DNA of 64,000 nucleotides from the IMG/VR virus record IMGVR_UViG_3300030419_005541, positions 1-64,000 of that record. One strand, 5' to 3'. The notes below the pieces were generated by a model. It did no database searches. It worked only from the letters and a program-made list of their open reading frames with translations, and was not told where the DNA came from. Source of the DNA: a virus. This document shows positions 21,592-48,410 of the stretch, piece after piece. Within the stretch, counting starts at the first letter, position 1. Each line of letters starts with the position of its first letter. The translations under genes were made by a program, and so were the position numbers.

Positions 21592-21915
21592 GTGCCAAGG
21601 AAAAAGAAATACTTGCCAAAGAACTTAAGCAAGTTCTACGTGAAGACTTCTGATAGGAATGACCATTTTGAAGATTGGAGACCATTTAAAGATGACCCTG
21701 TAGCAAGATTATTCACTTGGGAAGATTGTTGTTTTCGTAAGATGAAAGATGGTTGGATGTTCTTATGGCAACCTCCCGGTAATCAATACTCTAAAGGTTT
21801 TGCAGGATACGATAAAGTAGAAGCATTTGATAAAATGGTTGATTGGTTAGACCACAGAAGAAGACAAGCATTTAAAGAATTAGAAAAGGGCAAGTTACGA
21901 TTATCTAATGTATGA
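21592..21915 (+). CDS. Hypothetical protein, 107 aa
   Basis: GTG start without a good ribosome site. Trp/Phe/Lys-rich: NDHFEDWRPFKDDPVARLF, WMFLWQPPGNQYSKG. The aromatic pattern suggests a compact globular domain. Ends within the start of the radical SAM-QueC gene. Unknown function. Confidence 0.55.
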   Translation: MPRKKKYLPKNLSKFYVKTSDRNDHFEDWRPFKDDPVARLFTWEDCCFRKMKDGWMFLWQPPGNQYSKGFAGYDKVEAFDKMVDWLDHRRRQAFKELEKGKLRLSNV

Positions 21916-23602
21916 TTTAAGATATTTAAGACAAATAGATGTTAACCTAACAGACCTGTGTAATAAAACTTGTAGTTTCTGTCCAAGACATAGTCCTGAA
22001 GTTTATCCAAATAATAATCAACATATGACACTTGATTTATTTGAGAAGATAATTAACGAGTGTCTTGATATAGGTTTCAAAGCAGATATACTTCTTTGTG
22101 GTAGAGGAGAACCTGCTACACATAGAGAATATAAAAAAGTACTTGAGTTATTACACCATCCTGACCGAACTTGGAAAACTTGCTTAACTACTAATGGATA
22201 TAAATTTGAAGAGTATTGGGATTTCTATACTAACAATTTTGATAGTATTATTTTAAACACATATTCTACAAAAGAAGAGTATGATGAAAGAGTTGAAAAA
22301 TATGGATGGAAATTAAATACTTCAGGTAAGCAAGGTGAAAAACTACATAACATAAATAATCTTGAACATTATTATAAACCTGATTTACACGAAGATGGAA
22401 CTGCTGTTAGTGTCAAAGATGTGAATGAAGCAGAGTTTGGTTCACCATACAAAGGATTTAAATTACCATCATCTGATTCTACTTGGAAACTTTCTTTTAA
22501 TAGTAGATGCGGTTTACAAGATGAAGTAAAAGAAAATCCTTATGTACGTTGGGGATGTACACACGCTCTTGATTTTTTATTTTTAAATTTTGATGGTAAG
22601 ATTCATATGTGTTGTAATGATTGGGGCGATGGTGGTGGAAAAAATCAAACCGTAGTAGGTGACTTTACAAAAAATAATATCTTTCAACAATACAGGAGAA
22701 GTAAAAAACGTGCTAAGATAAATCACGCATTACTTAATGGAAGAAGACATTTGATTGAAGCTTGTTCTAAATGTGATGTACATAATAAAAAAGAAGATAA
22801 ATTAGCTAAAAAATTAATCAGAGAAAAAGACCCTATGTTAGCTAACTACTTAGGGAAACTTATGATGAGTAAAGAACCTTATTTTAGAAACGAAAGAGAT
22901 TTAGAGTTTATTGATAGAAAAGAAAACGAATCTAAAAAAGATAAGACAATCGTATTGTGGTCAGGCGGATGTGATTCTACTGCCGCTCTGTATAAAGTGT
23001 TAAAAGATTATGATGATGAAGTTATTGCACATCATATAAATTTTAAGAATTGGGAAAACAGATGGGAAGTAGAAAAAGAACGTATAGATAAAATGCTTCC
23101 TTGGTTAAGAAAAAATGTTAGAGATTTTAAATATTCAGAATCTTCTATCGAGATGGATTTGAATAACGTTGGTTGGGATATTCATCACGCTATGTATATG
23201 AGTGGTGTTGTGATTGCTAATGAAAAAAAAGATAATCGATATGAAGGTGATTATGGAAGTACTCAATATAAAAGATACAAATTAATTTTAGGAATACATA
23301 AAGACGAATTTAATTTAGAGAAATGGGATGCTTGGAGATTAAATTCTTCACAGATGTTATCGATGATGGGAAATTTAAAAAACCCACAAGAGTCTCAAGA
23401 CATACCTTATATTTGGCAAATATTTACAAAATACTCTAAAGAAGAAGTATGGAATATACTTCCTGAGTTTTTACAGAAAAACGTATGGGCTTGTCGTAGA
23501 CCACTTAAAGAAGACACTACTTGGATTGAATGTGGTGAGTGTGTAGCCTGTAAAGAAATAAATAAAATAAGAGAACCAAATGTTAAAAGTAATCGGACAT
23601 AG
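21908..23602 (+). CDS. queC: Radical SAM/SPASM protein fused to QueC-like PP-loop synthase
   Basis: 564 aa. N-terminal radical SAM cluster motif CNKTCSFC (Cys 18, 22, 25), then LLCGRGEP near residue 62; a SPASM-like auxiliary-cluster region follows with FDGKIHMCCND near 235 and EACSKC near 280. From about residue 345 a QueC domain begins: PP-loop SGGCDST at 352-358 and a C-terminal zinc site formed by Cys 529, 542, 545 and 548 (C-x12-C-x2-C-x2-C). QueC converts 7-carboxy-7-deazaguanine to preQ0 with ATP and ammonia. A separate QueE is at 41640, so the radical SAM half probably does something else to the base or its precursor. The fusion is not one I recognise from characterised 7-deazaguanine systems. 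No sign of a broken frame. Confidence 0.8.
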   Translation: MYDLRYLRQIDVNLTDLCNKTCSFCPRHSPEVYPNNNQHMTLDLFEKIINECLDIGFKADILLCGRGEPATHREYKKVLELLHHPDRTWKTCLTTNGYKFEEYWDFYTNNFDSIILNTYSTKEEYDERVEKYGWKLNTSGKQGEKLHNINNLEHYYKPDLHEDGTAVSVKDVNEAEFGSPYKGFKLPSSDSTWKLSFNSRCGLQDEVKENPYVRWGCTHALDFLFLNFDGKIHMCCNDWGDGGGKNQTVVGDFTKNNIFQQYRRSKKRAKINHALLNGRRHLIEACSKCDVHNKKEDKLAKKLIREKDPMLANYLGKLMMSKEPYFRNERDLEFIDRKENESKKDKTIVLWSGGCDSTAALYKVLKDYDDEVIAHHINFKNWENRWEVEKERIDKMLPWLRKNVRDFKYSESSIEMDLNNVGWDIHHAMYMSGVVIANEKKDNRYEGDYGSTQYKRYKLILGIHKDEFNLEKWDAWRLNSSQMLSMMGNLKNPQESQDIPYIWQIFTKYSKEEVWNILPEFLQKNVWACRRPLKEDTTWIECGECVACKEINKIREPNVKSNRT

Positions 23603-30854: not shown

Positions 30855-31523
30855 ATGTTCGAAACAATAAAAAATCTTATAAAATCATTTATGAGAACAA
30901 TCAAAAGTACAAAAGGTAATTCACTTGCTGAATTTGCAGTTACTACAGCTATGATGGCTACCTTAGCAACAACAGCCGCACCCAAGTTTGGTCAAGTCGG
31001 TGCAGGAGCTAAAGAAAAGAAGACAATGAATAACATTGATAAAATTCTAACCGTTGCAAATAATTTTTATAACCAAACACTATCTGAAGAAGGAAAAGGA
31101 AGATTTCCAGGACAAGAAAAGTATGATGTTGAAGTAGGTGGAGTTACACTTTCTGAAGGTCAACTTACAGATGAAGCATTAGAAATATATGTTGAAACTA
31201 TTCTTGATGCTAAAGATTCATATACATCAGATTTAGGTGAGTTTGTATATGTATTTTCACCATCTGTAGATGATGATGATGCTATTGATGGTGATTGGAT
31301 GAGTCTTGAAACATCAGTATCATTTGATGGTAACTCTGAAGTCGGTGCTCTTGACTTTAAAAGAGACTTTGGTAATAATGGTATGACAAGTCCTTTTCAG
31401 GATGGTTCATACGCATACTTAGTAATACCTGGTAGTGGTTCAGGTACATCTGCACAAGCACCTGTTATGGTCGTGATTGATACAGAGAACCCTTCAAAAC
31501 TTCATAAGACTTTAGTACCTTAA
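30855..31523 (+). CDS. Pilin-like protein 1 (long leader, divergent)
   Basis: 222 aa, ribosome site AGGAGA. A class III-type leader of about 21 residues ending KG is followed by NSLAEFAVTTAMMATLATTAA, so Glu is at position +5 of the mature protein, the hallmark needed for pilin assembly. N1 of the mature form is Asn rather than the usual Phe/Met. Larger than the three that follow; C-terminal region Asp/Gly/Ser-rich and beta-like. It resembles TadE/Flp- or T2SS-type pilins only in the N-terminal helix. Confidence 0.6.
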   Translation: MFETIKNLIKSFMRTIKSTKGNSLAEFAVTTAMMATLATTAAPKFGQVGAGAKEKKTMNNIDKILTVANNFYNQTLSEEGKGRFPGQEKYDVEVGGVTLSEGQLTDEALEIYVETILDAKDSYTSDLGEFVYVFSPSVDDDDAIDGDWMSLETSVSFDGNSEVGALDFKRDFGNNGMTSPFQDGSYAYLVIPGSGSGTSAQAPVMVVIDTENPSKLHKTLVP

Positions 31524-31558
31524 TCGATAACAGAACGTAAGTTCGGAAAGAGAAACAA

Positions 31559-32008
31559 ATGAAGAAACTAAAAAACAAAAACGGATTCACTTTGATAGAG
31601 TTAATTATGGTAATGATTATCTTAGGGATTTTAGGAGCAGTAGCTATTCCACGATATATGGAAACTATTGACAATGCTGAAATCGCCGCAGAAGATGCAG
31701 TTATTACTAATGTCGAAGCCGCACTCGAAAACTATGCAATACATAAACTGATTGCTGATGGTCGTAGAATTTGGCCCGATAATCCTTTTGACGCATTAAA
31801 GCAGAAACCTCAAACATACACACAGGATGGTACAAACGCTGACTCAGACCAAGAGTGGACTTTTGTAGATGGTAATCCTGCATACATTACCCATCAACGT
31901 TCAGATAATTCACGTTGGAAGTGGGAGTATGATGCAGGTATCAATACAGGCACAGATGCCGATACTACAGGATTCCTTGGTTCGAGAGAAAGTTTGACCA
32001 ATGAGTAA
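31559..32008 (+). CDS. Type IV pilin / pseudopilin-like protein 2
   Basis: 149 aa. Leader MKKLKNKNG, then the prepilin signature FTLIELIMVMIILGILGAVAI with Glu +5. The C-terminal domain has the motif WPDNPFDAL...EWTF...YITHQRSDNSRWKWEYD, shared with the next two genes. A prepilin peptidase must cut after the Gly; none is encoded here, so host PilD would be needed. Cell-surface or periplasmic filament subunit by family. Confidence 0.8.
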   Translation: MKKLKNKNGFTLIELIMVMIILGILGAVAIPRYMETIDNAEIAAEDAVITNVEAALENYAIHKLIADGRRIWPDNPFDALKQKPQTYTQDGTNADSDQEWTFVDGNPAYITHQRSDNSRWKWEYDAGINTGTDADTTGFLGSRESLTNE

Positions 32009-32468
32009 CAGGAAGGGATTCACGTTGATAGAGTTAATTATGGTAATGGTAATAATTGGCATATTAGCGGCGGTATCAATTCCTAGGTTCGCAACTATTG
32101 TAAGACAATCCGAAGCCGCATCAGAACAAGGTGTTCTCATCAGTATGGTAGCGGCTTTGGATACTTACTCTCACGAAAGATTTGTTGAAGATGGTGTATT
32201 ACAATGGCCAACAAATCCTTTCGATGCTTTAAATAAAGTTCCACCCTCTTATGATAAGACTAATACTACTTTGATGAGAGAGATGACCGATAGTGATTGG
32301 ATATATACCGGCGATGGTGATGAATATCCTAAACATATTGTTCATAGAAGAAAGGAAGATAGTTTAGCTATTTGGCCTTATAATCCTTTAACAGGTGAAA
32401 TCGGATACGATGACCCACCTTATCAACCTTCAGGTATGTTATACAGACCTAATTTGGAGATACAATAA
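32001..32468 (+). CDS. Type IV pilin / pseudopilin-like protein 3
   Basis: 155 aa. Short leader MSNRKG and FTLIELIMVMVIIGILAAVSI. Shares WPTNPFDAL...DWIY...HIVHRRKEDSLAIWPYNP with its neighbours. Overlaps the previous gene by 8 bases and the next by 1, so the three are made as one coupled unit. Confidence 0.8.
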   Translation: MSNRKGFTLIELIMVMVIIGILAAVSIPRFATIVRQSEAASEQGVLISMVAALDTYSHERFVEDGVLQWPTNPFDALNKVPPSYDKTNTTLMREMTDSDWIYTGDGDEYPKHIVHRRKEDSLAIWPYNPLTGEIGYDDPPYQPSGMLYRPNLEIQ

Positions 32469-32923
32469 TGTTTAAAACTTTTAAGAAAGTTATAAATGAT
32501 AAAATGAACGAAGGGTTTACCTTAGTTGAATTAGTAATGGTTATGATTATACTTGGTATTTTAGCCGCAGTCGCCGCACCAAAGATGACTAACGTTTTAA
32601 ACCAAGCAACGGTTAGAGCCGAAAAGACCACGGTAGATATGATATGGTCAGGTTGTGAATCTTATGCGGGTGATAAACTCATTGAGACAGGCACAGAATC
32701 CTGGCCATACAATCCATTAACAACATTTGGTAGAACAAGAAACTTAAAAATTAATTTAGAACTTGGTGTACCTGATGAAGATAATGAGTGGCAATTTAGT
32801 TTAATAGATGCAGGAGAACCTGCTATATTTCATCACAGACCTGATGATGAGATTTACTATTATACTTATGATTCTACTAACTTTGAGTTAGCAGAAGAAC
32901 CTGTTAGATACATCGCAAACTAA
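32468..32923 (+). CDS. Type IV pilin / pseudopilin-like protein 4
   Basis: 151 aa. Leader of 16 residues ending EG, then FTLVELVMVMIILGILAAVAA. C-terminal WPYNPLTTF...EWQF...IFHHRPDDEIYYYTYD again fits the shared pattern. The three C-terminal domains differ by more than half, so they are diverged paralogues rather than recent copies, as expected for a major/minor pilin set. Confidence 0.8.
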   Translation: MFKTFKKVINDKMNEGFTLVELVMVMIILGILAAVAAPKMTNVLNQATVRAEKTTVDMIWSGCESYAGDKLIETGTESWPYNPLTTFGRTRNLKINLELGVPDEDNEWQFSLIDAGEPAIFHHRPDDEIYYYTYDSTNFELAEEPVRYIAN

Positions 32924-41205: not shown

Positions 41206-41652
41206 ATGTATTATTCGTATAAACGTATAGGTCCTATTAGTACAGGACATAGACAATGGAAAGCAAAATCACATTGTCGTTGGGTTCACGGCTATGGTCG
41301 TTATGTAGAATTAAAATTCGCTTGTGATGAAAGAGATGAAAAGGGTTGGGTTTATAACTTTGGTGGATTAAAATGGTTTAAGAAATGGTTAGAAGAACAA
41401 TGGGACCATAAACTATTAGTAGCACACGATGACCCTGCCTTGTTAAGATTAAGAGAAATGGAAGCAGAAGACATTATCAGTTTAAACGTAATGCCTGAAG
41501 AGTATGGTCCGGGTATTGAAGATAGTTGTAGATATGTATTTGATTATGCGAATCCTGAGATTATAAATCAAACAAGTGGTAGAGTTTGGTTAGAAAGAGT
41601 TCGTATTTGGGAAACAGAAAATAATTATGCGGAGTATGTTTGGGTAAAGTAG
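41206..41652 (+). CDS. queD: QueD-like 6-carboxy-tetrahydropterin synthase
   Basis: 148 aa. T-fold landmarks: TGHRQWKAKSHCRWVHGYGRYVELKF carries the first zinc His, the catalytic Cys and the HGY (usually HGH) pair; WVYNFGGLKWFKKWLEEQWDHKLLVAHDDP corresponds to the family's DF..LK......LDH..LN. C-terminal VWLERVRIWETENNYAEY supplies the Glu. It converts dihydroneopterin triphosphate to 6-carboxytetrahydropterin. The second His of HGH is Tyr here, so zinc binding is altered or uses another ligand. Confidence 0.8.
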   Translation: MYYSYKRIGPISTGHRQWKAKSHCRWVHGYGRYVELKFACDERDEKGWVYNFGGLKWFKKWLEEQWDHKLLVAHDDPALLRLREMEAEDIISLNVMPEEYGPGIEDSCRYVFDYANPEIINQTSGRVWLERVRIWETENNYAEYVWVK

Positions 41653-42383
41653 CAATAGGTGAAATGTATCCTTGTCTTCAAGGCGAGGGTAAGTTCATTG
41701 GTATTCCTCATTTGTTGATAAGGGTTTCGGGATGTAAATTGAGATGTCAATTTGCTGAGTCGTTTTGTGATACACCTTTTGCAAGTTGGGCACCTGAGAA
41801 AGGTAAATTTACTTTAGATGATGTTAGAGATTTGTATAGACAATATCCTCAAATTAAATATACAATGATTACAGGTGGTGGTCCTACAGCACACGCTGAT
41901 TTGTTAAAACAATTATGTGATATAGCAGTTAATCAATATAATCATTATGTTACAATCGAAACAGAAGGTTCAGAGTTTGTACAAACAGATGCTCAGTTTA
42001 TTTCATTATCACCTAAGTTGTCTAATAGTACACCTAGGCCTGGTACAATGAATCCGTATACAGGAAAATTAGTTACAGAAGCAAACAAGAAACAACACGA
42101 GAAATGGCGTTGTAATTATGATGCTATGAAAGAATTACTAAACAATCACGAAGACTTTCAAGTCAAACCTGTGATATCAAACAAAAATGAATTAGAAGAA
42201 TTTAGAGCACTTCAAAAGATATTAAGTGTTCCTAACGATAAAGTCTATCTAATGCCTGAAGGGTTGAATAGAGAACAATTAAGAAGACGGAGACAATGGT
42301 TGTCGGAAGTAGCAGTAGAAATGGGTTACAATTTTACAGATAGATTACATATAATAACTTATGGAGATAAACGTGGAGTATAA
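41640..42383 (+). CDS. queE: QueE-like 7-carboxy-7-deazaguanine synthase (radical SAM)
   Basis: 247 aa from TTG 41640 (GGAG upstream, overlapping queD). MYPCLQGEGKFIGIPHLLIRVSGCKLRCQFAESFCDT contains the QueE Q-GEG and an expanded cluster motif C-x3-C-x6-C instead of C-x3-C-x2-C; TMITGGGPTAHADL and VTIETEGS follow, then FISLSPKLSNS. It rearranges carboxytetrahydropterin to CDG. The cluster spacing variant is of a kind known in QueE families. Confidence 0.85.
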   Translation: MGKVAIGEMYPCLQGEGKFIGIPHLLIRVSGCKLRCQFAESFCDTPFASWAPEKGKFTLDDVRDLYRQYPQIKYTMITGGGPTAHADLLKQLCDIAVNQYNHYVTIETEGSEFVQTDAQFISLSPKLSNSTPRPGTMNPYTGKLVTEANKKQHEKWRCNYDAMKELLNNHEDFQVKPVISNKNELEEFRALQKILSVPNDKVYLMPEGLNREQLRRRRQWLSEVAVEMGYNFTDRLHIITYGDKRGV

Positions 42384-42384
42384 T

Positions 42385-42603
42385 ATGATAGTTGAATATA
42401 TAGGTTGGTTAGGATTTGTCTTAATACTCTTTGGCTACTACTATAACGCACAACAGAAACTCTTCTGTTTTTATATATGGGGCATCGGCAATATATTTTT
42501 TTTAATATATGCTTTGCTAATACAAGCTATGCCCCAAGTAGCTATGTCAATATTTGTATTAGGTATGAATATCTATGGTTGGAATCAATGGAGAAAAAAA
42601 TGA
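42385..42603 (+). CDS. Small membrane protein, 72 aa (PnuC/PQ-loop-like)
   Basis: ATG 42385 after GGAG. Three hydrophobic segments: IGWLGFVLILFGYYYNA, FYIWGIGNIFFLIYALLI, VAMSIFVLGMNIYGW. The helix pattern with N/Y/W resembles half of a PnuC or SemiSWEET carrier. Being between queE and folE it might import a base precursor, but this is speculative. Confidence 0.5.
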   Translation: MIVEYIGWLGFVLILFGYYYNAQQKLFCFYIWGIGNIFFLIYALLIQAMPQVAMSIFVLGMNIYGWNQWRKK

Positions 42604-43223
42604 AATCAAACGGAAATAAACCACTTACAGAACATCAAAAGAAAATCACAATAAATAATGCGGCTAAACGTTATGGTCAATTTATGTCGTCACTTGGTTT
42701 TGAATGGGAAACTGACCCTAATTCATCCGACACACCTATGAGAGTTGCTAAGGCTTGGGTAAATGATTTAGCAGAAGGATGTTTCAATCACCCACCTAAG
42801 ATTACAGCATTTGATAATGTTGATAAATACGATGGTATGGTATTTGAAGGAAATATTCAAGTACATTCAATGTGTTCACATCATCATCTTCCTTTCTTTG
42901 GTGTAGCTCACGTTGCGTACATCGCTAAGCCTGAAGGTAAGATTATTGGTTTAAGTAAATTAAATCGTACGGTTGAGTTTTATTCACGTAGACCTCAAGT
43001 ACAAGAAAATCTTACAATGCAGATACACGACCACTTAGATGAAGTATTAGAAGTTCATGGTGGTATAGCTGTAATGGTAAGTGCTAAACATTTATGTGCT
43101 TGTTTACGTGGTGTTAAACATCCTCACTCTGCTATGAAAACATCAAAGTTAAGTGGTGCATTCAGAGATGGTGATGTTAGTGTTCGTCAAGAATTTTATA
43201 ATTTCGTAAAGGATATGAAGTAA
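42600..43223 (+). CDS. folE: GTP cyclohydrolase I FolE
   Basis: 207 aa, start ATG 42600 in an ATGA overlap with GGAG upstream. Zinc/active-site region SMCSHHHLPFFG (Cys and His ligands near residue 92), IGLSKLNRTVEFYSRRPQVQENLT, and MVSAKHLCACLRGV with the second Cys near 160; SGAFR ends the fold. Converts GTP to dihydroneopterin triphosphate, the first step of the 7-deazaguanine route. Confidence 0.95.
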   Translation: MKSNGNKPLTEHQKKITINNAAKRYGQFMSSLGFEWETDPNSSDTPMRVAKAWVNDLAEGCFNHPPKITAFDNVDKYDGMVFEGNIQVHSMCSHHHLPFFGVAHVAYIAKPEGKIIGLSKLNRTVEFYSRRPQVQENLTMQIHDHLDEVLEVHGGIAVMVSAKHLCACLRGVKHPHSAMKTSKLSGAFRDGDVSVRQEFYNFVKDMK

Positions 43224-43822
43224 TGAAAAGAAAAAAATGGCTACCTGACCCGAATCACCCTATATGTTGTTATCCAGGATGTGATAGAAAAGTTCACGTT
43301 ATGAGAGTGATATCAAATGATAATTCAAAAAAACCTATTGAAGTTCCTTCGGCTTATAGAGTATTTAGAGCTGTATGTAAGATGCATCACGAATATAATT
43401 GGAACGAAAAAATGAAAAGAAGAATTGACGGAGTAGGTTTGAAAACTATTAAACTTCTTAAAAAAGATTATTGTGAAAATTATGATGGACATCTTGGATT
43501 TAAATGTTGTACAAAACACGACAAAAGTAAAATTAATATGATGCAAGAAACGGGTGTGTTAGAATCAAGAAAACTTGACTTAGACCATAAAGATGGTGAC
43601 CACTTTAATAATGACCCATCTAATATACAGACACTATGTAAATCTTGTCACGCTACAAAAACTCATATTAATGGTGATTCTAAATATAGAGGAAAAAATC
43701 AATTTGTTGGTCAAAAGAAAAAAGAGAATTTTAATTGCCACCCGTTAGGTCCAAATGGAACAAAACCTTTAAAACATATAAATCCAAGTTTCTTTTTTAA
43801 AACTACAAAAGAGGAAAAGTAA
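43223..43822 (+). CDS. HNH endonuclease
   Basis: 199 aa. HNH core LDLDHKDGDHFNNDPSNIQTLCKSCHATKTH near residues 115-145. Shares the YCENYDGHLGFKC element with the HNH at 12233, indicating one family. It interrupts the 7-deazaguanine cluster between folE and a conserved hypothetical, a typical place for a free-standing homing endonuclease, although a host- or self-DNA nicking role is equally open. Confidence 0.8.
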   Translation: MKRKKWLPDPNHPICCYPGCDRKVHVMRVISNDNSKKPIEVPSAYRVFRAVCKMHHEYNWNEKMKRRIDGVGLKTIKLLKKDYCENYDGHLGFKCCTKHDKSKINMMQETGVLESRKLDLDHKDGDHFNNDPSNIQTLCKSCHATKTHINGDSKYRGKNQFVGQKKKENFNCHPLGPNGTKPLKHINPSFFFKTTKEEK

Positions 43823-44166
43823 TGCAAACAAATATAATTGTAAAACTACAAGTAGAAGGTACTCATAATTGGCCTACTGCAGGTGACTTTGAACCTACTA
43901 TGAAATATCTTGAACATCAACATAGACATATGTTTCACATTGATGCACGTAGAGAAGTATTTCACGATGATAGAGATGTAGAGTTTATTGTATTCAAACG
44001 TAAAATTAAAAACTATCTTGAAATGAAATATTATAATTCAGAAATAGATTGTTGTGACTTTGGTTCTCAATCTTGTGAGATGTTAGCATCTGAAATTTAT
44101 AAAGAGTTTGAATTATGTTATTGTGCAGTTTATGAAGATAATGAAAATGGAGCAGAAGTATATTAA
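43822..44166 (+). CDS. Conserved phage hypothetical, 114 aa
   Basis: Sequence features HNWPTAG, HQHRHMFHI, VFHDDRDVEFIVFKRKI, CCDFGSQSCEMLASEIY and VYEDNENGAEV. I recognise this as a widely conserved phage protein of unknown function. Fold may be T-fold-like given HRH and DRDVEF, but this is a guess. TAATG junctions on both sides. Confidence 0.6.
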   Translation: MQTNIIVKLQVEGTHNWPTAGDFEPTMKYLEHQHRHMFHIDARREVFHDDRDVEFIVFKRKIKNYLEMKYYNSEIDCCDFGSQSCEMLASEIYKEFELCYCAVYEDNENGAEVY

Positions 44167-44957
44167 TGTCTGATGTAATAATACATAAACCGGTACCTGA
44201 TATTAAGTGGCCACATAGAATTGTAGATAATTTCTTTTCAGAAAAAGAATTAAATTGGATACGAAAATCATTTAACAAAGGTTACAGAGATTTAGAAAAA
44301 AGATTTCCTAAGTGTTTTGAGAATGGTAAAATGAAACCGTATGAGAAAATTAAACATATGGGAGGAGATAAAGATGTACTTCTTACAGGATTTAGTGCTT
44401 ACGTTCCTTTTTGGTCTACTGAAAGAGTTTCAGAAGCTATAGATGATGTTTGGAAAGAAGCGATAGAAATATATCCATATAAAAAAGATAAGAATATAAA
44501 AAGAAAAGATTTTTTTAGTTATCTTGAACTTAATATTTATCCTGTAGGATTAACTTACAATAGACATTTAGATGTTAATTATAAATCATTTACCGGAGTA
44601 GTTTATATAGGAAAAGAAGGCGATGGTACTACACTAATATGTGGTGAACGAGAAATTGATGTACATTGGCAAGATAATCGTAGCGTATTATTTATGAATG
44701 TTGATGAAGAACGTAGAGATAAAAGAGATTATGATGATAAATTAAGTTCTTGGCATAGATATGCTAATAAAGGAAATGACGTTAGATTTGCTATAAACTT
44801 TAATATGACACATATGGATGATGTAGGTCCTTTAATAGGAAACTTTTTACATCGTGATAAAAAAATATTTTCCCCGTTTGAAAAAGAACAAAGAGAAGTT
44901 CCTAAATTTGGTCCAATATTAGTTAGTTGGGCACCTGTAGCTAAGGAGATGTTATGA
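44166..44957 (+). CDS. 2OG-Fe(II) oxygenase
   Basis: 263 aa. YNRHLDVNYKSFTGVVYIG contains the H-x-D iron ligands near residue 136, and SWHRYANKGNDVRFAINFNM gives the distal His and the 2OG-binding Arg near 210. Family resembles prolyl-4-hydroxylase/2OG oxygenases common in marine phages. Between folE/queD and dpdA it could oxidise a modified base or nucleotide. Confidence 0.75.
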   Translation: MSDVIIHKPVPDIKWPHRIVDNFFSEKELNWIRKSFNKGYRDLEKRFPKCFENGKMKPYEKIKHMGGDKDVLLTGFSAYVPFWSTERVSEAIDDVWKEAIEIYPYKKDKNIKRKDFFSYLELNIYPVGLTYNRHLDVNYKSFTGVVYIGKEGDGTTLICGEREIDVHWQDNRSVLFMNVDEERRDKRDYDDKLSSWHRYANKGNDVRFAINFNMTHMDDVGPLIGNFLHRDKKIFSPFEKEQREVPKFGPILVSWAPVAKEML

Positions 44958-45358
44958 AAAAATATATTAGTTGGGATGAGTTAGAAAGATTAGTTGATGA
45001 ACTTTGTGATATGATTCCTGATAATCAATACGAAGGTATTTATGCAATACCAAGAGGTGGTTTGATTATAGGAGTTATGATGAGTCACAAATTAGGTTTG
45101 CCGATGATAGATAGATTACAAAGTTATTATGGTAAAAAGTTTTTAATTGTAGATGACATAGCAGATACAGGAGAGACTTTAGAAAAATTAAAAGCAGAGA
45201 TATTTGCAAATGCACATACAGCAACAATACACTATCATAAACAATCTGTAGTTGAACCTTCTTTTTGGGTAGAAGAAAAAGGTGATGATTGGATTGTTTA
45301 TCCTTGGGAACAAGAAGATAGTGAAGAAATACAAGATTATTTGAAGGAGACAAAATGA
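44954..45358 (+). CDS. Phosphoribosyltransferase-like protein
   Basis: 134 aa, ATGA overlap. IYAIPRGGLIIGVMMSHKLGLPMI and the PRPP loop FLIVDDIADTGETLEKL (two acidic residues, then DxADTG) are type I PRTase signatures; WIVYPWE at the end matches hypoxanthine/xanthine enzymes. The short hood domain makes substrate prediction impossible. It may convert a purine or 7-deazapurine base to a nucleotide. Confidence 0.75.
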   Translation: MKKYISWDELERLVDELCDMIPDNQYEGIYAIPRGGLIIGVMMSHKLGLPMIDRLQSYYGKKFLIVDDIADTGETLEKLKAEIFANAHTATIHYHKQSVVEPSFWVEEKGDDWIVYPWEQEDSEEIQDYLKETK

Positions 45359-46386
45359 AGTTATATTTAGTTGATTTAGAACCTATCGAAAAACGATACA
45401 CTAAACAATGGCAAGAATGGATACCTAAATTAGTAAAGAAGTATGGTGGTAAGAAATTTGATGTAGAAACTATTTCAGGTAAATCAGATGGTGAAATTAA
45501 ATCAGGACAATTTCTTGATATTAACAGAACACAAACTTATAAAAGTGAACAGATAATAGAGATTGCTAATTTGTTCGAAGAAGGTAAAGTTAGTGATGGT
45601 GATGTATTTTTATTTTATGATGGTTGGCATTATGGTATACAGGCTTTACGTTATATGTCTCAATGTCAAGATATCGATGTAAAGATATATGCTATATGGC
45701 ACGCGGGTACTTACGATGAGTGGGATTTATTGGCACAGAAAGGTCTTGGATATTGGGGTGCTAATTTTGAGCGTTCTTTATTTGAAGCAACTGATGGTGT
45801 ATTCTCTTCTACAGAATTTCATAAAAATTTGATATCGACTACTCGTAATGTTCCGGCTGAGAAAATACACGTAACAGGATATCCTTTCTCACACGATTGG
45901 TTAAAAGATTATGATACATCTAAGAAAGAAAACATTGTTGTCTTTCCACACAGGACTGCTCCTGAAAAAAGACACGATATCTTTTTAGAGATTGCAAAGA
46001 AAATGAAAAAGTCAAAAATAGAATTTATAACTACTACAGATGTAACAGAAACAAAAGATGATTATTATAAATTATTAGCTAAATCAAAAGTTAGTTGGTC
46101 AGGTGGTTTACAAGAAACTTGTGGTATATCTACTTTTGAAAGTATGTGGTTAGGTAATATCGTAATGGTTCCGGATAGATTATCTTATCAAGAAATGTAT
46201 TTTGATATGTTTAAATATGAACCGCATTTAGATTCTGATGTAGATACACAATGTCAAATGATTCAATTTGCTATAGAAAATTATGATGAATATGTAGATT
46301 CTATAAAAGAAAATGCAGAAAAATTAAAAGATGAACAAGGTCCTACAGCAGTACAAAGAATGTTAAAAATTATATCGGAGGCGTAA
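45355..46386 (+). CDS. GT-B-like glycosyltransferase (GT4-type)
   Basis: 343 aa. C-terminal part: VVFPHRTAPEKRHDIFLEIAKKM near 200, SGGLQETCGISTFESMWLGNIVMVPD near 250, the E-x7-E-like nucleotide-sugar motif of GT4. N-terminal half FLFYDGWHYGIQAL and AIWHAGTYDEWDLL. Directly upstream of dpdA (overlapping TAATG). A plausible glycosylation of modified base or of DNA, by position; not shown by sequence. Confidence 0.7.
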   Translation: MKLYLVDLEPIEKRYTKQWQEWIPKLVKKYGGKKFDVETISGKSDGEIKSGQFLDINRTQTYKSEQIIEIANLFEEGKVSDGDVFLFYDGWHYGIQALRYMSQCQDIDVKIYAIWHAGTYDEWDLLAQKGLGYWGANFERSLFEATDGVFSSTEFHKNLISTTRNVPAEKIHVTGYPFSHDWLKDYDTSKKENIVVFPHRTAPEKRHDIFLEIAKKMKKSKIEFITTTDVTETKDDYYKLLAKSKVSWSGGLQETCGISTFESMWLGNIVMVPDRLSYQEMYFDMFKYEPHLDSDVDTQCQMIQFAIENYDEYVDSIKENAEKLKDEQGPTAVQRMLKIISEA

Positions 46387-47600
46387 TGAACAAAAAGATT
46401 GGTAAATTTAAATACTTCCCTTCTTTCTCAGCAGGTGAGTTCGGACACGGGTTATTAAAGAATCATAAATTTAAAGATGAACTAACTTGTAGATTTTATA
46501 CAGAAGAGTTTCCTGAAGAATTTAGATATACAGATTTTTTAATTACAGCAGGTGCTCATAGGACACGTAAAGATTTCTATAATGAATTAGGATTCAAACG
46601 TGACACAAATCTAATTATGGGTGACTCAGGTGGTTATCAAATAGCATCAGGTGCAATCAAATGGAAACCTGAGTTGAAGACTCAAGTATTTGAATGGTTA
46701 GAAAACAATTCTGATATTGCTATGAATCTTGATATACCACCAAGATTAAAATACACAGGTAAGTTCAGAGAGTGTTTTGATATTTCAATGGAAAACTTTA
46801 AATACTTTAATGAGAATCAATCAGGTAGAACTAAATTCTTAAATGTATTACAAGGTGAAGATGATACTACATATCAAGAATGGTATAACGCTGTAAAAGG
46901 ATTTGACTTTCAAGGTTGGTCTATTGGTGGTACTGCAGGTGACATATTTAGATTTATGGCAAGTGTATGTACTCTATTAGAAGGTAGAGAACACGAAAAG
47001 AAATCAAATGAGTATCTACATATTTTAGGTACATCACGTATTCAAGATTTCTTTATGTTATTACAATTACAGAAGTCACTTGAAGATGTAGGTTCTAATT
47101 TAGTAATTACTACTGATTCATCTACTCCGGACAGAGCAGTTGTGTTTGGTTTGTATTATACTTCTTTCTCTTTTAAAGATGCAAGATTCGAAGCATTTAA
47201 TATGCCAAGAGAAAAACATCTACCTGAGATGCCTCAGATGTTAGATGAATTAAAAACACAAAATCTGATTGGTGTAAATGACTTCGATAGATTTATTGAG
47301 AAATGGGCTGATATGAGAGATGTATGTGATTGGAATTGGGATGGTCAGTTTAGAATGAGACTACATAACTTTTATTTGTTCTTAGATACTATTGAACTGA
47401 TTGAACAATCAATATATGGTATCAGACATAACTTAGAACAAATGATACCTAAAGAATTAGCTCAAGTGTTAAGGTCTATTGATGAAATGGTTAAATCAGA
47501 TAACCCTCGTAAAGTATTTGATAGATATAAAAAATTATACAACAAAGTTTCTAATGTAAAGAAAAGTCTTGTTGTAAAAGAAAATAACTTTTTTGGATAA
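46386..47600 (+). CDS. dpdA: DpdA-like tRNA-guanine-transglycosylase homolog for DNA
   Basis: 404 aa. TGT-like TIM barrel: MGDSGGYQIASG near residue 80 (nucleophile-region Asp and GGYQ), DIAMNLDIPP near 118, FLNVLQGEDD near 157, GWSIGGTAGD near 180, ILGTSRIQDF near 218. C-terminal zinc motif of queuosine TGT is absent, as in phage DpdA proteins. These enzymes exchange guanine in DNA for a 7-deazaguanine base such as preQ0. With FolE, QueD, QueE and QueC encoded here the pathway is complete on paper. Confidence 0.85.
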   Translation: MNKKIGKFKYFPSFSAGEFGHGLLKNHKFKDELTCRFYTEEFPEEFRYTDFLITAGAHRTRKDFYNELGFKRDTNLIMGDSGGYQIASGAIKWKPELKTQVFEWLENNSDIAMNLDIPPRLKYTGKFRECFDISMENFKYFNENQSGRTKFLNVLQGEDDTTYQEWYNAVKGFDFQGWSIGGTAGDIFRFMASVCTLLEGREHEKKSNEYLHILGTSRIQDFFMLLQLQKSLEDVGSNLVITTDSSTPDRAVVFGLYYTSFSFKDARFEAFNMPREKHLPEMPQMLDELKTQNLIGVNDFDRFIEKWADMRDVCDWNWDGQFRMRLHNFYLFLDTIELIEQSIYGIRHNLEQMIPKELAQVLRSIDEMVKSDNPRKVFDRYKKLYNKVSNVKKSLVVKENNFFG

Positions 47601-47609
47601 GGAAATAAA

Positions 47610-48410
47610 ATGAAATTAAAAGTAGACGACTTACAAGAACGTATGCAGTATATTCGTGACCACGTTGAGGCTTTCAACACGGAAGAACGTACTGATGCGT
47701 TAAATAAAATGTATGACCATTTTGAAGAACGTATGATGTTAGCTCCTGCTTCATCTACAGATTATTTTCATAACTCTTGGCCTGGTGGATATATAGACCA
47801 CGTTATGAATATAACTGAAGCAGGTAAAAAATTGTTTGAACTTTATAAAGACTTTGGCTTTAAACTATCATACGATTTAGATTCTGTAGTGTTCTGTACG
47901 ATGCACCACGACTTAGGTAAACTTGGTAGTCTTGATGAAGACTATTACAGACCTAATCCTTCTGAATGGCATAGAATCAATCAAGGTAAGATGTACGAAG
48001 TCAATCCTAACTTACACAATATGACCGTTACTGATAGAGCAGTTTATACGTTGAGTCAATTTGGTGTAACATATTCTGAACAAGAGTATTTAGGATTAAG
48101 ACTTGCAGATGGTATGTACGAAGAAGGTAACAAAGCATATTTGATGGGATTCGGTGAATCTAAAAAAATAAAAACAAATATTGCTCAGTTAGTACATCAA
48201 GCAGATATGATTGCAACTCGTTATGAGATGGAACGTTATATGTTTAGTGATGATGCTAACATACCTTATGCTGATATTTTAGGTATTGAAAAAGACGAAC
48301 CGGTTGAAGTTAAAGAAGAAGTAAAGAAGATTGAAAAGAAAGAAAAACCTAAAGTAGATAAGGATTACAAGAACCAATTATTTGAAGACTTATTTGGAGA
48401 TAAAAAATGA
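47610..48410 (+). CDS. HD-domain phosphohydrolase
   Basis: 266 aa. Motifs WPGGYIDHVMNI, FCTMHHDLGKLG (the HD pair, near residue 100), and a C-terminal LVHQADMIATRYEME provide the metal-binding His/Asp set. The C-terminal tail is Lys/Glu-rich. Such proteins in T4-like phages are annotated as metal-dependent phosphohydrolases acting on nucleotides. Adjacent to dpdA, so it may act on a deaza-nucleotide or dGTP pool. Confidence 0.7.
   Translation: MKLKVDDLQERMQYIRDHVEAFNTEERTDALNKMYDHFEERMMLAPASSTDYFHNSWPGGYIDHVMNITEAGKKLFELYKDFGFKLSYDLDSVVFCTMHHDLGKLGSLDEDYYRPNPSEWHRINQGKMYEVNPNLHNMTVTDRAVYTLSQFGVTYSEQEYLGLRLADGMYEEGNKAYLMGFGESKKIKTNIAQLVHQADMIATRYEMERYMFSDDANIPYADILGIEKDEPVEVKEEVKKIEKKEKPKVDKDYKNQLFEDLFGDKK

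What the first reader, a model, noticed from the sequence alone, without database searches (positions are those of the whole stretch)
21908..23602. Radical SAM/SPASM enzyme fused to QueC
One 564-aa ORF joins a radical SAM domain (CNKTCSFC, GRGEP, later Cys-rich SPASM-like region) to a complete QueC domain (SGGCDST; C529/C542/C545/C548). A separate QueE radical SAM enzyme is also present, so this is not the CDG-forming step. The fusion suggests a new chemical step applied to CDG or preQ0, giving an uncharacterised 7-deazaguanine base. I do not know of a described enzyme with this architecture.
Basis: partly seen in the sequence, partly recalled or inferred. Interest (0 to 1): 0.8.

Follow-up and report, generated by a model that had tools for sequence, protein, structure and literature searches.

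The report
Viral radical-SAM enzyme fused to QueC-like ligase
A marine virus encodes one protein that joins a radical-chemistry enzyme to an ATP-using enzyme resembling the queuosine enzyme QueC; the join is real and the same two enzymes sit side by side in other phages, but the QueC-like half lacks the residues that recognise 7-deazaguanine, so it probably makes or attaches something else.

Summary
Window 21908-23602 is one unbroken 564-aa ORF with a radical SAM core (CxxxCxxC, GRGEP), a SPASM/twitch region and a QueC-like PP-loop domain (SGGCDS; C529/C542/C545/C548). Codon usage is uniform across the join, which falls where a 53%-identical standalone viral homologue ends.

The C-terminal domain is QueC-like but not canonical QueC: YxQxHxxE, VPxRN, YPDC and the zinc-loop Tyr are all absent. 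Its nearest relatives are phage QueC-like singletons, mostly beside virion genes. It lies 18 kb from the virus's QueD-QueE-FolE-DpdA cluster, which lacks QueC in the closest relatives.

New here: in at least ten other marine-phage contigs the two enzymes are adjacent, overlapping genes beside a carbamoyltransferase; no QueE was found in those records. The rSAM half folds most like BtrN, a twitch radical-SAM sugar-alcohol dehydrogenase.

Best reading: a two-step tailoring enzyme coupling a radical step (probably oxidation) to ATP-dependent activation, on a substrate other than 7-deazaguanine. Use of the QueC half as a substitute QueC is not excluded. It is a new architecture built from known families; substrate and reaction are untested.

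The parts
21908..23602 (+). Fusion ORF, 564 aa: radical SAM/SPASM(twitch) + QueC-like N-type ATP pyrophosphatase
21941..22309 (+). Radical SAM core (residues 12-134): C18xxxC22xxC25, GRGEP 65-69, TTNG 94-97
   Evidence: PF04055 38.6 bits; invariant columns in 8 viral homologues
22556..22777 (+). SPASM/twitch region (residues 217-290): C217, C235, C236, C286, C289, conserved CCNDW motif
   Evidence: PF13186 21.4 bits, just under cutoff; conserved cysteines; best structural match BtrN
22778..22936 (+). Linker and join (residues 291-343); the standalone homologue in L004 ends here
   Evidence: alignment A2; one search matches residues 1-341
22937..23575 (+). QueC-like PP-loop domain (residues 344-556)
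   Evidence: phrog_1550 E 1.5e-15; PF06508 on the first 50 residues only
22961..22978 (+). PP-loop SGGCDS (residues 352-357)
23492..23551 (+). Zinc motif C529-x12-C542-xx-C545-xx-C548 with WxCRRP signature
41206..41652 (+). QueD (virus's own 7-deazaguanine pathway, context)
   Evidence: PF01242 82 bits; TIGR03367 E 3.5e-11
41640..42383 (+). QueE (context)
   Evidence: phrog_2076 E 3e-38; TIGR QueE models
42477..43223 (+). FolE, GTP cyclohydrolase I (context)
   Evidence: PF01227 167 bits
46386..47600 (+). DpdA-like transglycosylase (context; weak TGT match, assignment mainly by context)
   Evidence: PF01702 E 0.0038; 22% match to TGT-domain proteins of Vibrio phages; no NCBIfam hit

Best explanation
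The protein is a natural fusion of two parts. One is a largely virus-specific, BtrN-like twitch radical SAM enzyme. The other is a divergent phage QueC-like N-type ATP pyrophosphatase (WxCRRP subfamily). Together they form a two-step tailoring module that also exists as two adjacent genes in other marine phages. Shown by sequence: the ATP-loop and zinc motifs, the radical SAM and auxiliary-cluster cysteines, the clean join, the recurring pairing, and the absence of QueC's CDG motifs. Inferred: the radical SAM half abstracts a hydrogen from its substrate and, with the auxiliary cluster as electron acceptor, most likely oxidises an alcohol (BtrN/SpeY-like). The PP-loop half then adenylates a carbonyl or carboxyl group with ATP and couples a nitrogen nucleophile (amide, amidine or conjugate). 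Neither step has been assayed. The substrate is probably a sugar-like group, a nucleoside or a protein-linked group of the phage rather than CDG or preQ0, and the product would decorate a virion, glycan or nucleic-acid component.
For: 1) Clean domain ends: the L004 standalone homologue (53% identity) aligns to residue 341 and then stops. 2) Pairing: in the L135-L147/L187-L196 contigs the rSAM gene is followed, with a ~25-nt overlap, by a QueC-like gene. That gene was found by the A1 HMM, which excluded these sequences (best E ~5e-8), passes the PF06508 cutoff (30 vs 22 bits), matches A1 by hhalign at 96.6% over the zinc region, and has a paralogue whose only hit among the window genome's ORFs is the fusion (E 1e-5). 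3) Those cassettes carry a carbamoyltransferase and an acetyltransferase-like gene, and no QueE was found. 4) BtrN is the best structural match (E 1e-11, TMt 0.73-0.78), followed by other twitch/SPASM enzymes including SpeY, BlsE and DesII. 5) CDG/preQ0 motifs absent. 6) Nearest C-domain relatives (PIS 136, E 6e-18; Muddy, 2e-5) sit in virion gene modules. 7) Hutinet et al. (PMC6884629) already suspected that phage QueC singletons are functionally unrelated N-type ATP-PPases.
Against: The paired genes in other phages are distant (rSAM ~30%, QueC-like ~22% identity) and their PP-loop is altered (SGGLEC), so they may not do the same reaction. Most standalone rSAM relatives have no QueC-like gene. 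The C-domain structural model is poor (pLDDT 49), so its substrate site was not modelled. The virus has the genes to make CDG and no other QueC. Substrate and reaction are inferred from fold and neighbours only.
Confidence: 0.5

Rival explanations
1. The QueC-like half is the virus's working QueC: it supplies preQ0 (or ADG) to the DpdA-like enzyme, and the radical SAM half is an accidental or unrelated fusion partner.
For: FolE, QueD, QueE and a DpdA-like gene are present but no other QueC in the 126.5-kb record. More distant dpdA viruses do carry a QueC or QueC-like gene next to dpdA. PP-loop and zinc cysteines are intact.
Against: YxQxHxxE, VPxRN, YPDC and the CY tyrosine, reported as needed for preQ0 synthesis or CDG recognition (PMC13329287, PMC13279940), are all missing. 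The gene is 18 kb from the cluster. The closest dpdA relatives also lack QueC within the fetched flanks, so their pathway may not need it. The pair exists in records without QueE.
Confidence: 0.2
2. One reading: the fusion performs a new step on CDG or preQ0 and yields an uncharacterised 7-deazaguanine base in the DNA.
For: CDG pathway and DpdA-like gene in the same genome; a QueC-like domain in the same polypeptide as a radical SAM enzyme; no other QueC.
Against: CDG-recognition residues (Y and D of YPD) absent. No genomic linkage to dpdA. Closest standalone rSAM homologue is in a record without QueE. No dpdA relative was found with the fusion, although those records are fragments.
Confidence: 0.13
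3. Protein deazaguanylation: like Cap9, the QueC-like half joins virus-made CDG to the N-terminus of a protein (for example a virion protein) that the radical SAM half also modifies.
For: QueC-family proteins Cap9 (shown) and QatC (proposed) modify protein N-termini (PMC13279940, PMC13329287). The nearest phage relatives lie beside virion genes. SPASM enzymes often act on peptides (established knowledge). The virus has the genes to make CDG.
Against: Cap9 keeps the CDG motifs that are missing here; PADLOC's QatC model does not match. PIS 136 and Muddy have no QueE gene annotated in the stretches read. No partner protein identified.
Confidence: 0.1
4. Assembly or sequencing artefact joining two genes.
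For: Only one contig carries the fusion.
Against: Open frame, uniform codon usage and GC, join at natural gene ends, and adjacency of the same two genes elsewhere.
Confidence: 0.05

Closest known systems
Canonical QueC (PF06508 cluster 1; E. coli and B. subtilis QueC)
   Same: N-type ATP-PPase fold start, SGGxDS loop, C-terminal C...CxxCxxC zinc motif, domain length
   Different: No YxQxHxxE, VPxRN or YPDC; CRRP in place of CY; fused to radical SAM; not in a que operon
Phage QueC-like singletons (Saccharomonospora phage PIS 136 ExsB, Mycobacterium phage Muddy gp16, Vibrio phages VCPH and YC; within phrog_1550)
   Same: SGGxDS and WxC[R/E]x-P...CxxCxxC signature; PIS 136 aligns over the whole domain at 26% identity
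   Different: Not fused; PIS 136, Muddy and VCPH genes lie among virion structural genes; function unknown
BtrN (2-deoxy-scyllo-inosamine dehydrogenase) and other twitch/SPASM radical SAM enzymes (SpeY, BlsE, DesII)
   Same: Closest solved folds to the rSAM half; CxxxCxxC plus an auxiliary-cluster cysteine set
   Different: About 10-16% identity in the structural alignments; substrate residues not compared; none is known to carry a PP-loop domain
Adjacent rSAM/SPASM + QueC-like gene pair in IMG/VR marine phages (L135-L147, L187-L196)
   Same: Same two families, same order, overlapping genes
   Different: Separate genes, altered PP-loop (SGGLEC), next to carbamoyltransferase and acetyltransferase-like genes
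Gat-QueC of phage 9g and archaea
   Same: QueC-type domain in a fused viral protein
   Different: Partner is a glutamine amidotransferase and the protein works in the dG+ pathway (PMC6884629)

Membership tests
Canonical QueC (7-cyano-7-deazaguanine synthase) | SGGxDS pyrophosphate loop | tested here: met
   SGGCDS at 352-357
Canonical QueC (7-cyano-7-deazaguanine synthase) | C-terminal C(x)nCxxCxxC zinc motif | tested here: met
   C529/C542/C545/C548
Canonical QueC (7-cyano-7-deazaguanine synthase) | YxQxHxxE, VPxRN and YPDC motifs (Y35, R99, Y131 essential in E. coli QueC) | tested here: not met
   None found in the C-domain; all three present in L032, L091 and L092 by the same search (motifs from PMC13329287)
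Canonical QueC (7-cyano-7-deazaguanine synthase) | Essential Tyr in the zinc loop (Y189) | tested here: not met
   C529 is followed by RRP; no C[YF] in the domain
Canonical QueC (7-cyano-7-deazaguanine synthase) | NCBIfam equivalog score | tested here: not met
   TIGR00364 15.4 bits vs cutoff 150.3; note that the viral QueC L032, with all motifs, also falls short (130.7)
Canonical QueC (7-cyano-7-deazaguanine synthase) | Converts CDG to preQ0 | not testable with these tools
   needs enzyme assay
Cap9 / QatC protein-modifying QueC family | Cap9: CDG-recognition Y and D (YxD) retained | tested here: not met
   The only Y.D in the domain is YDD at 368, far upstream of the YPDC position
Cap9 / QatC protein-modifying QueC family | Match to QatC model | tested here: not met
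   PADLOC search returned QueC weakly but not QatC for P0001
Cap9 / QatC protein-modifying QueC family | Partner protein with N-terminal glycine acceptor | not tested
   no partner identified
Radical SAM enzyme | CxxxCxxC, GGE-type motif and Radical_SAM fold | tested here: met
   C18/C22/C25, GRGEP, PF04055 above cutoff; cysteines, G65, R66 and E68 invariant in relatives
SPASM / twitch subfamily | C-terminal auxiliary-cluster cysteines and PF13186 | tested here: inconclusive
   21.4 bits vs 21.5 cutoff; C217/C235/C286/C289 conserved; paired homologue L142 passes clearly, 41.4 bits
BtrN-type twitch dehydrogenase | Overall fold | tested here: met
   Foldseek to 4m7t E 1.4e-11, TMt 0.73; 4m7s TMt 0.78; rSAM core blocks mostly pLDDT 75-97
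BtrN-type twitch dehydrogenase | Substrate oxidation | not testable with these tools
   needs enzyme assay; substrate residues not compared

The most novel reading that the evidence does not exclude
A previously undescribed viral biochemical module, twitch radical SAM plus QueC-like ATP ligase, occurs fused or as neighbouring genes and installs an unknown modification on a phage component, unrelated to queuosine or 7-deazaguanine. Many phage genes annotated 'QueC-like queuosine biosynthesis' would then be a different enzyme class.
Probability: 0.35. Interest if true: 0.75.

Novelty: new variant of a known kind. Interest (0 to 1): 0.55.

Why it matters
The fusion and its unfused pair link two enzyme families in phages for which no joint role was found in the papers searched. 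If the pair acts together, it names a concrete two-step reaction to look for. It also warns that phage genes labelled QueC may not be queuosine enzymes: in these marine viruses a QueC with the CDG motifs can be told from this divergent type by sequence. It leaves a sharp open question for the dpdA viruses that seem able to make CDG but lack canonical QueC: which 7-deazaguanine is in their DNA.

Tried and rejected
A1 (QueC-like) alignment scan of viral contigs: no conserved stretch long enough. C-domain single-protein scan: no relatives. P0001 in bacterial/archaeal genomes: none. A7 rSAM alignment there: one weak Campylobacterales MAG hit. PhoH-neighbour approach to find syntenic relatives of the fusion: no fusion among 45 records; two long-ORF phrog_1550 hits (G024, G066) were asparagine synthase-like, not fusions. 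DNA hypermodification by carbamoylation of hydroxymethylcytosine (PMC8670742), considered because of the carbamoyltransferase neighbour: no thymidylate-synthase-like (PF00303) or C5-methyltransferase gene in the paired-gene records, so not favoured. C-domain structure (pLDDT 49) gave only generic PP-loop matches at E>=0.02, not used to assign function. The rSAM tree could not say whether the pairing arose once or twice.

Full report
1. Observation. Window 21908-23602 encodes one 564-aa protein without stops. It has a Radical_SAM domain (12-134), a SPASM-like region (217-290, a hair under Pfam's cutoff) and a QueC-like region (Pfam only 346-395; phrog_1550 over 340-556, E 1.5e-15). Codon usage of the two halves fits the genome and their GC agrees. 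The record is an IMG/VR virus of 126,522 bases.

2. The join. The closest relative of the N-terminal half is a standalone 323-aa protein in another virus (L004; 53% identity over residues 1-341), which simply ends at the join. That 70-kb record has no QueC-like gene and no QueE. So the fusion joins two whole genes. No second copy of the fusion was found in IMG/VR, in GTDB genomes, or in 45 records reached through the neighbouring PhoH gene; many of those viral records are fragments.

3. The QueC-like half is not canonical QueC. A 2026 study of the family (PMC13329287) defines canonical QueC by YxQxHxxE, VPxRN and YPDC plus an essential Tyr in the zinc loop. QatC work (PMC13279940) shows that Y and D of YPD hold the 7-deazaguanine base. 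All are missing here, while the same search finds YxQxHxxE, VPxRN and YPDC in QueCs encoded next to dpdA in related viruses (L032, L091, L092). The nearest relatives are phage singletons: PIS 136 ExsB (26% over 92% of the domain, E 6e-18), Muddy gp16 and VCPH. They share W-x-C-R-[R/N]-P...CxxCxxC. Muddy gp16 directly follows the annotated major tail protein gene; VCPH lies in a tail module; the PIS 136 gene follows pas16, which looks like a major tail protein by eye only. Hutinet et al. 2019 (PMC6884629) noted that singleton phage QueCs may be functionally unrelated ATP pyrophosphatases.

4. The dpd pathway in this virus. QueD (41206), QueE (41640), FolE (42477) and a DpdA-like gene (46386; weak TGT similarity, assigned mainly by context) lie together 18 kb downstream of the fusion. 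Close relatives (DpdA 51-97% identity; L011-L028) show no QueC within the fetched flanks; in the four read gene by gene (L014, L016, L022, L025) the rest of the cluster is kept. More distant ones (L029, L032, L091-L093) have a QueC or QueC-like gene beside dpdA. The window virus has no QueC other than the fusion. Hence either the base is CDG-derived, the host supplies QueC, or the fusion substitutes; the motifs argue against the last but do not exclude it.

5. The pair elsewhere. Among the best 80, L135-L138, L140-L144 and L147 carry a QueC-like gene (225-230 aa; two copies cut by contig ends) right behind the rSAM gene. A scan with that gene found 14 contigs, and in all five loci examined gene by gene the two genes overlap by about 25 nt. 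Homology to the fused domain is distant but supported four ways. The cassette adds an acetyltransferase-like gene (no Pfam match; by eye), a carbamoyltransferase (PF02543/PF16861) and a DUF6071-like protein, and sits between two genes that look by eye like halves of a NAD+ DNA ligase. No QueE was found in those records, the largest 88 kb. The PP-loop is altered there (SGGLEC), a caution. On the rSAM tree the fused and paired forms lie in one 13-row clade (99/96) that also holds unpaired groups, with the order unresolved.

6. Fold of the rSAM half. The full-length model is good for the core (blocks mostly pLDDT 75-97) and poor for the C half. Foldseek's best matches are BtrN (E 1.4e-11, TMt 0.73-0.78), followed by a sactipeptide enzyme, BlsE, EpeE, anSME, SuiB, SpeY and DesII. 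BtrN, SpeY and DesII act on sugar-like compounds (established knowledge); several of the others act on peptides, so a peptide substrate is also within the fold's range. The wider viral family also lies near Kdo-type and glycosyltransferase-like genes in several viruses. A sugar-type oxidation is therefore the favoured guess, not a finding.

7. Mechanism. Step A (inferred): SAM cleavage, H-atom abstraction and oxidation through the auxiliary cluster. Step B (inferred): adenylation by the PP-loop domain and nitrogen coupling. The physical fusion suggests the product of one half feeds the other, but no order, substrate or product has been tested.

8. Verdict. Real, unusual, and not found in the papers searched (most subscription literature is not covered). 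It is a new architecture of known families. The 7-deazaguanine interpretation is not supported by the motifs or the context but is not ruled out.

Noticed in passing
window 41206-48410 and L011-L028: dpdA viruses with FolE, QueD, QueE and a DpdA-like enzyme but no QueC near it; a glycosyltransferase-like gene (45355) directly precedes dpdA in several. Their DNA base may be CDG-derived.
   Followed up: partly
window 43822-44166: 114-aa protein (phrog_17812, unknown) inside the cluster, resembling a minimal second QueD-like T-fold (HxH pattern by eye); conserved in L014, L016 and L022.
   Followed up: no
L032, L091, L092: Phage QueCs with all canonical substrate motifs but without the C-terminal CxxCxxC zinc motif.
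   Followed up: no
L029 9222-9992, L054, L093: A different QueC-like type next to dpdA: SAGMDS loop, VPIRN and zinc motif kept, weak QatC similarity (NF041925 E 4e-7).
   Followed up: no
L096 8019-8705, L097 4028-4579: In phages PIS 136 and Muddy a QueC-like gene follows a major tail (or tail-like) gene, suggesting a tail-linked role for this subfamily.
   Followed up: partly
L136, L142, L191 (about 2.6-10.9 kb): What looks like a NAD+ DNA ligase gene split into two ORFs with a five-gene tailoring cassette between them.
   Followed up: no
L199 / L203: The same phage (L142 record) has a second QueC-like gene (GGGIET loop) beside a sulfotransferase-like gene and a paralogue of the acetyltransferase-like gene.
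   Followed up: partly
window genome 120581-121492 (L007 16581-17492): Paralogous standalone radical SAM/SPASM gene beside a DAHP/KDO8P-synthase-family gene and glycosyltransferase-like genes.
   Followed up: partly
window genome 110990-116962 (L007 6990-12962): 1990-aa protein made almost wholly of Thr/Ser-rich short repeats (TTYNTTKSTIT), near structural-type genes.
   Followed up: no
window 30855-32923: Run of pilin-like proteins (N-terminal methylation motif, PF07963 in 31559-32008) in a virus genome; also present in L004.
   Followed up: no
L100 (Campylobacter phage CJLB-12): Several radical SAM genes in a row in a Campylobacter phage.
   Followed up: no
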